A stretch of 64,000 nucleotides of DNA from contig CAJNDS010002734.1 of the NCBI GenBank assembly GCA_905221605.1, positions 310,001 through 374,000 of the forward strand. The letters are read 5' to 3'. The position numbers were made by a program, and so were the translations under genes. The notes below the pieces were generated by a model. It worked only from the letters and a program-made list of their open reading frames with translations, was not told the origin of the DNA and searched no databases. Below are positions 52,733-54,965 of this stretch, one piece after another. Every line of letters starts with the position of its first letter. Position 1 is the first letter of the stretch. Source of the DNA: Symbiodinium natans. Taxonomy: Eukaryota; Sar; Dinophyceae; Suessiales; Symbiodiniaceae.

Positions 52733-54965
52733 GCGGCATCAGGTCTGCGCGAGACAAAGACAAAACCTCGATGTATGTCAAGGTGTAGCCGGTGACAGGA
52801 TGGATGAGAGACGTATCCTTGGCGAGGAATCAGCCAGGAATTCAGTCACTGACTGTTGTCCCTGGAGATTGAGTCCCCAAGCATCCCCCCCCCCCCCCCC
52901 CCAGAATACTCAATATCCCTGCACCCTAAACAATTCTTTCATGCTCGTCGGGCGAAACTTGGTGAGGGGCCAGCTAGGGCGTTCTTGGGGGACGGGTCGC
53001 CCTCAACGCACGGAGGCCCGGCAAACCTAAACCCGGAAACCATTTCGGGGAGTTTCTGAAATTAGGGCTACGTTCTCGGGGTCCGCACTAAGGGGGGATC
53101 CTACTGTTTGCGGATCTATAACCCTAAACCCTGAACCCTGAACCCTACACCCTACACCCTAAACCTAATATTGGGGGTCCCCCATTTTCGTAAGCCCCCA
53201 GCTTCTCGTCTTGGGGTGAAGCGCTCCGAGGCCGGATGGCATCATTCGCTTATCACAAGCAGAGTTGGTTTAGGGTTTAGGGTTTAGGGTTTAGGGTTTA
53301 GGGTTTAGGGTTTAGGGGCTTAGGGTTTAGGATTGAGGGTTGATTCTGAGTAGGTCAAGGATCCCACAACACAAAATCTTCGCCCCAGACTTCTCCATGA
53401 GATCGCACTCTGCTGTTCAAGGCCACTAAGCCCTTGGACAGGATGTACAGCACCTTAGGCGGAGCGGTCACCAGCTAAAAAACGTCTGTGAAGTTCGGTG
53501 GCAACAGCACCAACCTAACATTACTTGAAGGCTCGTGTGGGATGTTCCCCCTTATACTAACAGTCCTTCATAGGGATTATCATAGGGGCTACTAGAATCC
53601 CTTTTAAGGAGCTGCTAGTATCATTCAGGGGGAGCATCCCAGAAACCTCGTGGTTGTAAGGAGCTGCGTCTGAGCAGTATGGTGGGAACCCTAAGCCCTA
53701 AACCCTAAACCCTAAAAGGGCACCTGCACGTTGGTGAAGGCTTCCCGCTGCGCGAAGGCTCCGAAGGAGAGCATCTTCGACACGTGCGCCACGCATGCCT
53801 GATATGGCTCGGTGTGCCTGCCCATCCGCTCCTGCCTCCTGATGAAGTTCATGAACTTGTTAAAGAAATGCACCTTCTGAAGCCAAGCGAAGTTGGTTGC
53901 AATGCACACCTCAGACTGCAGCTGGGGACTCATACGATCCAGGAGAGCCTGGCGAGCCATTACGAGGGATTGATGCTTGTTCTGCAGGAAGAAGCTTCGC
54001 AGCCGGCAGCACAAGTCGTACGGAAGCCCCTGGTCGCGCATCATCAGATTGAGGTGATGCATCCGCTTTCTGAAGACGTGACTCTCGGCAGTCAGGTCAT
54101 GGACAATGGCTGCGACCTCACCAATGACATAAGCCCAAGCCAACCCAGCCGAGAGGATTATTACACAGCAGATGGTTCGCTCCAGCATGTTCGCAGGCCC
54201 GATGTCTCCGTAGCCCACGGAGGTTAGGGTATAGCTGCAGAAGTAGAAGGAGGATAGGTAGACTCGCCATGGCGAGTCTCGAGTATTGATCCCGATGGCA
54301 CGATCCTCTTCTGCGATGCCATCGATCCATGAGGGATGGTCTTCATCCCCCAAGCCTTAGTTGCTGAGATCATAAGCCTCATTAGGGTTTAGGGTTTAGG
54401 GTTTAGGGTTTCGGGTTTAGGGTTTCGGGTTTCGGGTTTAGGGTTCCCACAAAAGTGAGAAAAAAGGTGTACTTATTCAGCTACTAAGAAACTCAGGGTC
54501 ATGGCCCAGAGGCATGCCAGCCAGTGGCAAACGAAGGCCAAGATCAACAAGAACCGAGTCAGAGCCATCTGCTGGTATGGTATCGACAGTGGCACCTCAA
54601 TCTTGTGCATGAACCTTAGACAGGCTCAGAATAGGGTTTAGGGTTTAGGGTTTAGGGTTTAGGGCTGTGAGGGTTTAGGGGTTGTGTAGAGTAGCGCTGG
54701 CTTGTTGCAACCTAGCACCCTGACAACAAGACACTGTCGCGAGTAAAAGGAGGAAGAAAGGGAAAACAAAGGCAGTACAAAACAATTAGGGTTGGTTTCT
54801 GCTTTAGGGTTTAGGGTTATAACAGGGGCTGCATTAAGTGAGCCCAGGTTCTGGGAGGACTTGGCCAGACGCATGATCTTCACAAGGCGCAGCGTTCGCA
54901 GCCTGACAGCGGACCGCTCTATCCCCAAACCCTAAACCCGAATGGACCTCTCACCCCTCCTTTAA

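What the first reader, a model, noticed from the sequence alone, without database searches (positions are those of the whole stretch)
54356..54492. A spliced intron that is an inverted-repeat element filled with telomeric repeat
Between the S5 and pore exons of the potassium channel lies an element with 12-bp terminal inverted repeats (CTTAGTTGCTGA/TCAGCTACTAAG), a near-perfect 4-bp flanking duplication (GTTT/GCTT in gene sense) and a core of TTTAGGG units. Excising it from the upstream GTTT to the terminal AAG restores the channel frame exactly. So telomeric DNA is carried into a gene as the cargo of an introner-like element. I know of no described introner family with telomeric cargo.
Basis: partly seen in the sequence, partly recalled or inferred. 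Interest (0 to 1): 0.93.

Follow-up and report, generated by a model that had tools for sequence, protein, structure and literature searches.

The report
Transposon-born intron hit by telomeric insertion
A small mobile element made an intron in a potassium-channel gene of an alga, and a piece of telomere repeat was then probably inserted into it separately; the surprise is how common such telomere pieces are in this alga's DNA.

Summary
The features are real. Window 54356-54492 (gene on the minus strand) is a predicted 137-bp GT-AG intron: a 4-bp target duplication (GTTT; other copy GCTT) plus a 133-bp element with 12-bp inverted ends and a 64-bp telomeric tract. Excision gives a frame that homologues read across.

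The element belongs to a family: 596 exact end-pairs in the 759-Mb genome, 0 for the reversed pattern, with 4-bp duplications. That is the published Symbiodinium introner architecture (PMC9860276).

The "telomeric cargo" reading is not supported. The family consensus lacks the repeat. At least 57 of 596 pairs carry a tract, at different places and in both orientations; 38 analysed events show 37 distinct junction sets, and the window's right junction was found once. Tracts are common everywhere sampled (3.1 loci/kb in flanks; 7 of 8 introns of this gene).

Best reading: telomeric repeats were inserted later, by break repair. Extra microhomology on the telomerase-priming side only (P 0.011) and clustering at the central hairpin (P 0.003) hint at telomerase. 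The introner family then serves as a ruler of known empty sites.

The parts
54356..54492 (-). Predicted GT-AG intron, 137 bp: upstream target-duplication copy plus element
   Evidence: Frame-restoring excision and homologues crossing the join; splicing not seen in RNA
54356..54488 (-). 133-bp introner copy with inverted ends
   Evidence: profile match over model positions 1-103
54477..54488 (-). Terminal inverted repeat at the intron 5' end, CTTAGTAGCTGA in gene sense
54356..54367 (-). Terminal inverted repeat at the intron 3' end, TCAGCAACTAAG in gene sense, ending in the 3' splice site AG
54489..54492 (-). Upstream target-duplication copy GTTT, supplying the 5' splice site GT
54352..54355 (-). 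Downstream target-duplication copy GCTT, kept in the exon
54382..54445 (+). 64-bp telomeric tract, TTTAGGG-type units on the plus strand, replacing about 38 bp of the element
54493..54619 (-). Upstream channel exon (S5)
   Evidence: tblastn with P0002 to 54619-54494
53721..54355 (-). Downstream channel exon (pore and following)
   Evidence: tblastn with P0001 and P0004; exact 3' border not tested

Best explanation
Two separate events. First, a short non-autonomous inverted-repeat DNA transposon (an introner of the Symbiodinium type) inserted into the potassium-channel gene with a 4-bp target duplication. It became an intron whose 3' splice site is the element's terminal AG and whose 5' splice site comes from the upstream duplication copy. 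Second, a double-strand break inside the element was repaired with loss of about 38 bp and insertion of about 64 bp of telomeric repeat, possibly made by telomerase at a broken 3' end and then sealed by end joining. The same kind of insertion struck other copies independently, and tracts of the same kind fill ordinary non-coding DNA. Shown: the family, the target duplication, the frame-restoring excision, the scattered tract junctions. Inferred: splicing in cells, the order of the two events at this one locus, break repair as the route and telomerase as the agent (the last about even odds).
For: 596 exact end-pairs, 0 in controls. Exact 4-bp target duplication in 38 of 61 elements and at least 3 of 4 bases in 53 of 61; flank shuffles give a mean of 0.91 and a maximum of 6 exact matches. 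Consensus of 16 short copies without telomeric repeat. 38 tract events give 37 distinct sets of orientation and junctions; the one coincident pair is expected by chance (0.28-0.52). Masked flanks of the 61 loci share nothing but L009/L014 and one 66-bp match. Window right junction found once at up to 3 mismatches. Background 248 tract loci in 80 kb of flanks, 3.1/kb or about 0.32 per 103 bp, against at least 57 of 596 elements. Net change at the site from a 15-bp duplication to a 43-bp deletion, the end-joining pattern described for mammalian interstitial telomeres (PMC7215372 section 12). Microhomology on the priming side: mean 1.67 against 1.05 simulated, P 0.011, n = 49; on the other side 1.07 against 1.18, P 0.64, n = 41.
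Against: No RNA reads, so splicing is untested. The microhomology excess is modest and rests partly on five long matches (6 to 9 bases) of 49, at least four of them at TTTTTGGG in the element. The window element itself has 0 bases of microhomology on the priming side. No empty orthologous site was available, so at this locus the order (tract after transposition) is argued from the family. A small tract-bearing subfamily with the junction GGG/AACCCTAAA (L018 and L038 on both sides, the window on the left side only) is not excluded: the genome count asked for did not complete.
Confidence: 0.82

Rival explanations
1. Telomeric cargo: a subfamily of introners carries the telomeric tract and spreads it by transposition.
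For: L018 and L038 share both corrected junctions, and the window shares the left one; under the cruder uncorrected borders L006 and L010 coincide instead. L009 and L014 carry the same tract-bearing copy.
Against: 37 distinct junction sets among 38 events; coincidence of one pair is expected by chance with probability 0.28-0.52; L009/L014 are identical over all 4132 fetched bases, so the locus, not the element, is duplicated; window right junction found once; tracts denser outside elements.
Confidence: 0.06
2. Break repair without telomerase: ready-made telomeric fragments, or cDNA of telomeric transcripts, are captured by end joining.
For: Deletions and short duplications at the sites fit end joining alone; no telomerase-RNA pieces were sought or found; the priming-side excess is modest; the telomeric-transcript route is proposed for mammals (PMC7215372 section 12).
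Against: Microhomology excess lies only on the side telomerase would prime.
Confidence: 0.3
3. Local birth by slippage: short telomere-like seeds in the element (TTTTTGGG) expanded into tracts.
For: Several tracts start at TTTTTGGG (L023, L025, L043, L048), and junctions cluster nearby.
Against: Tracts also arise where the consensus has no seed, and in both orientations (23 and 19 of 42); 25 events without microhomology of 3 or more bases still cluster centrally; net deletions up to 43 bp are not expected from slippage.
Confidence: 0.08
4. The repeat stretch was already in the gene and the inverted ends arose around it by chance, or the region is not an intron.
For: Other introns of this gene hold tracts without inverted ends of this family.
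Against: Family profile match over positions 1-103 with E 2.1e-9; 0 end-pairs in controls; frame restored by excision.
Confidence: 0.02

Closest known systems
Introners of Symbiodinium microadriaticum, family 1 (Gozashti et al. 2022, PMC9860276; section 7 with the Fig. 2 legend read, and passages)
   Same: 4-bp target duplications, terminal inverted repeats, 3' splice site carried by the element, 5' splice site co-opted from the duplication; the cited example spans 115 positions
   Different: The main text has 0 hits for 'telomer'.
Short interstitial telomeric sequences inserted at double-strand breaks in mammals (Nergadze et al. 2007, PMC2246262, passages; Santagostino et al. 2020, PMC7215372, abstract and section 12)
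   Same: One-step insertion of a telomeric tract at a break, with small deletions or duplications and bases in register at the broken 3' end
   Different: Human and chimpanzee total 83 and 79 loci there, and the mouse and rat rows sum to 244 and 250; here 2.3-3.1 tract loci per kb, by a different definition, with TTTAGGG units. The register excess here is weaker: 63% of junctions with one or more bases against 45% simulated, versus 67-80% against under 25% expected in that paper.
Amoebophrya introner elements (Farhat et al. 2021, PMC7789003, passages)
   Same: Dinoflagellate introns with inverted repeats and short direct repeats at exon borders
   Different: A large share of non-canonical splice sites and no family-specific inverted-repeat motif reported there; here one conserved end motif.

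Membership tests
Introner of DNA-transposon type | Many copies of one sequence at unrelated loci | tested here: met
   596 exact end-pairs, controls 0; masked flanks of 61 loci unrelated apart from L009/L014 and one 66-bp match
Introner of DNA-transposon type | Terminal inverted repeats | tested here: met
   12-bp ends, 11 of 12 matching in the window copy
Introner of DNA-transposon type | Fixed-length target duplication | tested here: met
   4 bp: 38 of 61 exact, 53 of 61 with at least 3 of 4; background identity outside. The window copy has 3 of 4.
Introner of DNA-transposon type | Lies in a gene and its exact removal restores the frame | tested here: met
   Window copy: homologues cross the join. 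For the family the frame test was inconclusive: sense longer in 35 of 61, antisense longer in 22 of 61.
Introner of DNA-transposon type | Splicing observed in RNA | not testable with these tools
   No RNA reads available
Symbiodinium microadriaticum introner family 1 | Sequence similarity to that family | not testable with these tools
   Figure sequence not held; only text and legend seen
Break-repair interstitial telomeric sequence | Insertion into an identifiable pre-existing sequence, with deletion or short duplication | tested here: met
   Empty site inferred from the consensus of sibling copies; net change from a 15-bp duplication to a 43-bp deletion in 38 events
Break-repair interstitial telomeric sequence | Bases in register with the repeat at the broken 3' end | tested here: inconclusive
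   Excess on the priming side, P 0.011 (n = 49), none on the other, P 0.64 (n = 41); window copy has 0
   37 distinct sets among 38 events, the one coincidence expected by chance; window right junction found once. A genome-wide count of one junction class did not complete (and repeats).

The most novel reading that the evidence does not exclude
In this dinoflagellate, insertion of telomeric repeats at chromosome breaks is a leading mutational process: on the order of two million dispersed tracts if the sampled 2.3-3.1 per kb holds over 759 Mb, and tracts in nearly every intron of the gene examined. The introner family, with hundreds of similar copies, gives each insertion a known empty site, so break position, deletion size and telomerase priming can be measured inside one genome. 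Breaks concentrate at the hairpin-forming centre of the element.
Probability: 0.45. Interest if true: 0.75.

Novelty: new member of a known kind. Interest (0 to 1): 0.5.

Why it matters
The element is one more dinoflagellate introner, and the claimed new kind (telomeric cargo) is not supported. What remains is unusual: short telomeric tracts make up about 12% of this 64-kb window (7494 bp) and 18% of 80 kb of flanks elsewhere in the genome. Interstitial telomere insertion has been studied from tens to hundreds of loci by comparing species. Here a multi-copy family lets it be studied within one genome, which makes the question whether telomerase makes interstitial telomeres at breaks directly testable. 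It also warns that a repeat found inside a mobile intron need not have travelled with it.

Tried and rejected
Telomeric cargo: set aside on junction diversity, the single occurrence of the window junction and background density.

A tract-bearing element moving as a unit: L009 and L014 carry the same tract-bearing copy, but all 4132 fetched bases are 100% identical, so this is a duplicated or redundantly assembled stretch.

Family-wide frame test across excised elements: inconclusive. Sense frame longer in 35 of 61, antisense longer in 22 of 61; among 40 elements whose upstream copy starts with G, frames of 60 codons or more were 32 sense and 27 antisense; among the other 21, 8 and 9.

Cruciform breakage: the consensus folds strongly as DNA (z -4.0) but the tract-bearing window copy does not (z -0.9). 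A junction lies in the central inverted repeat in 24 of 38 events (simulated 15.3, P 0.0026); without events that have microhomology of 3 or more bases it is 15 of 25 (simulated 9.5, P 0.017). It remains a lead: TTTTTGGG, a possible primer, adjoins the same place.

Rows dropped: of 42 tract-bearing elements I left out 4 before the junction statistics (L014 duplicate, L012 ambiguous orientation, L036 tandem end, L041 long poly-G), leaving 38. The 14 extra one-sided ends are those whose junction I could read in the listings; C691, C1335 and the nested C2242:265970 were left out as complex. One search printed only part of its 501 places, and I fetched the first 20; the others were checked for tracts only by the pattern, whose inner length stops at 85.

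Naming the species: not achieved. Homologues with names are Symbiodiniaceae channels; a search on Symbiodinium natans was a guess from genome size and settled nothing.

Full report
What was checked. The window is G000:C2422:310001-374000 of a 759,417,921-bp genome in 2543 contigs with no name given. Of the channel's 44 homologues, those with organism names are Symbiodiniaceae (for example Symbiodinium microadriaticum, Symbiodinium sp. KB8, S. pilosum, Effrenium voratum), so this is a dinoflagellate, probably of that family; the species is not established.

The intron. In gene sense (minus strand) the sequence reads CCCTGA, then GTTT, then a 133-bp element CTTAGTAGCTGA...TCAGCAACTAAG, then GCTTGGGG. 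Removing GTTT plus the element gives T-L-S-L-G-D and a 258-codon sense frame across the join. In an alignment with 14 homologues, P0002, P0004, P0005, P0007 and P0010 read across the same point with no gap, so the excision is very probably the true splice. Exons were placed by tblastn; one, 54830-54915, was placed by eye from the translation. Transcript evidence is missing.

The family. The end pattern CTTAGTWGCTGA...TCAGCWACTAAG occurs with inner spacing 60-90 in 501 places, 91-121 in 53, 122-152 in 31 and 153-183 in 11, against 0 for the reversed pattern each time. A few places are counted in two spacing classes (for example on C236 and C91). Sixty-one elements with flanks (40 long tract-bearing ones, the first 20 listed, and the window) show a 4-bp target duplication: exact in 38 of 61, at least 3 of 4 bases in 53 of 61, per-base identity 0.82-0.90 in register, against a shuffled mean of 0.91 exact matches. 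A profile from 16 short copies finds the window copy over its full model length. It also finds about eight further copies or fragments in the fetched flanks, three of them with tracts (L030, L031, L034), so the exact-end count is a lower bound for the family.

The tract is not family sequence. The 103-bp consensus has no telomeric repeat. Tract-bearing copies: at spacing 91-121, 22 of 51 seen out of 53 (21 fetched and the window have one; 20 checked by script and 9 read from the listing have none; 2 were not seen); at 122-152, 21 of 31 (19 fetched, 2 read from the listing; in some of the other 10 a few central bases are not printed); at 153-183, 11 of 11 (read from the listing); among the shorter 501, 3 found (2, plus L048), a lower bound. 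That is at least 57 of 596 pair counts. Tracts lie from near one end to near the other, 23 in one orientation and 19 in the other among 42. The 38 analysed events give 37 distinct sets of orientation and junctions. The one coincidence, L018 with L038, is expected by chance with probability 0.28-0.52 under three jitter settings; with uncorrected borders another pair, L006 with L010, coincides instead. The window's right junction was found nowhere else with up to 3 mismatches (that tool scores only its best candidates).

Background. By one definition the window has 148 tract loci (2.3/kb, 7494 bp; 76 and 72 by orientation), and 80 kb of flanks around 20 elements not chosen for tracts has 248 (3.1/kb, 18% of bases). 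Seven of eight mapped introns of this same gene hold tracts; the eighth has a 14-base stretch with a variant unit, outside the criterion. At 3.1/kb a 103-bp stretch would carry 0.32 tracts; the elements carry about 0.1, so they are not enriched. They may be younger than the surrounding DNA, and requiring intact ends and limited length lowers the count.

How the tract got in. Because the empty site is inferred from sibling copies, each insertion can be measured. Net change runs from a 15-bp duplication to a 43-bp deletion and tract length from 24 to 106 bp in 38 events; in the window about 38 bp were lost. On the side where telomerase would extend a 3' end, bases in register with the repeat are in excess (mean 1.67 against 1.05 in simulated random insertions put through the same procedure, P 0.011, 49 junctions); on the other side they are not (1.07 against 1.18, P 0.64, 41 junctions). 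Mammalian interstitial telomeres show the same signs, more strongly (PMC2246262, passages seen; PMC7215372, abstract and section 12 seen). Junctions also concentrate at the central inverted repeat GGGATACTATAATCCCC: 24 of 38 events have one there against 15.3 simulated, P 0.0026. Whether that is hairpin breakage or priming at the adjoining TTTTTGGG is open, and the window copy itself shows no priming-side microhomology.

Known or new. The architecture (4-bp duplication, inverted ends, 3' splice site in the element, 5' splice site from the duplication) is that described for Symbiodinium microadriaticum introners (PMC9860276, section 7 with Fig. 2 legend). Dinoflagellate introners are also treated in PMC11453091, PMC10666404 and PMC7789003 (passages); Roy et al. 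2023, cited there, is not held and was not read. Searches of the held library: introner with interstitial telomere, 0 papers; Symbiodinium with interstitial telomere, 2 papers, seen as listings; Symbiodiniaceae with telomeric repeat, 2 coral-genome papers, seen as listings; dinoflagellate, TTTAGGG, telomere and intron, 6 papers, passages of four read. One paper holds introner, dinoflagellate and telomeric repeat together (PMC12730881); its passages are about a chlorarachniophyte and chromosome ends. In what I saw of these there is no description of telomeric tracts inside introners or of so dense a load of tracts. Subscription papers and supplements were not searchable.

Verdict. A real and well-described observation, with the wrong reading of the tract. 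It is a dinoflagellate introner of known architecture with what is most likely an independent telomeric insertion. The genome-wide load of such insertions is the surprising part and deserves its own study.

Noticed in passing
window 1-64000: 148 dispersed telomeric tract loci, 2.3 per kb, 76 in one orientation and 72 in the other, 7494 bp in all.
   Followed up: partly
L036:2001-2160: The element is followed by a telomeric tract and a second copy of its right end, as if a staggered break of about 20 bp had been filled in around the insertion.
   Followed up: no
L031:2227-2401: A second, diverged family copy with GATC on both sides and its own central telomeric tract, in the opposite orientation to the tract of the first copy.
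   Followed up: no
G000:C2242:265970-266136: What looks like one family copy beside part of another with a telomeric stretch between them (listing).
   Followed up: no
L009 and L014: 4132 bp 100% identical on two contigs, one stretch about 4 kb from its contig's end: recent duplication or redundant assembly.
   Followed up: partly
L022, L042 and L065-L084: Several of the longer family copies owe length to poly-C/poly-A runs near the right end (listings); 20 of 20 checked in L065-L084 had no telomeric tract.
   Followed up: no
P0003, first 40 residues: A gene model of a related channel starts with residues that look like translated telomeric repeat (VETLKPKSLQ), suggesting telomeric sequence in its neighbouring intron as well.
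   Followed up: no
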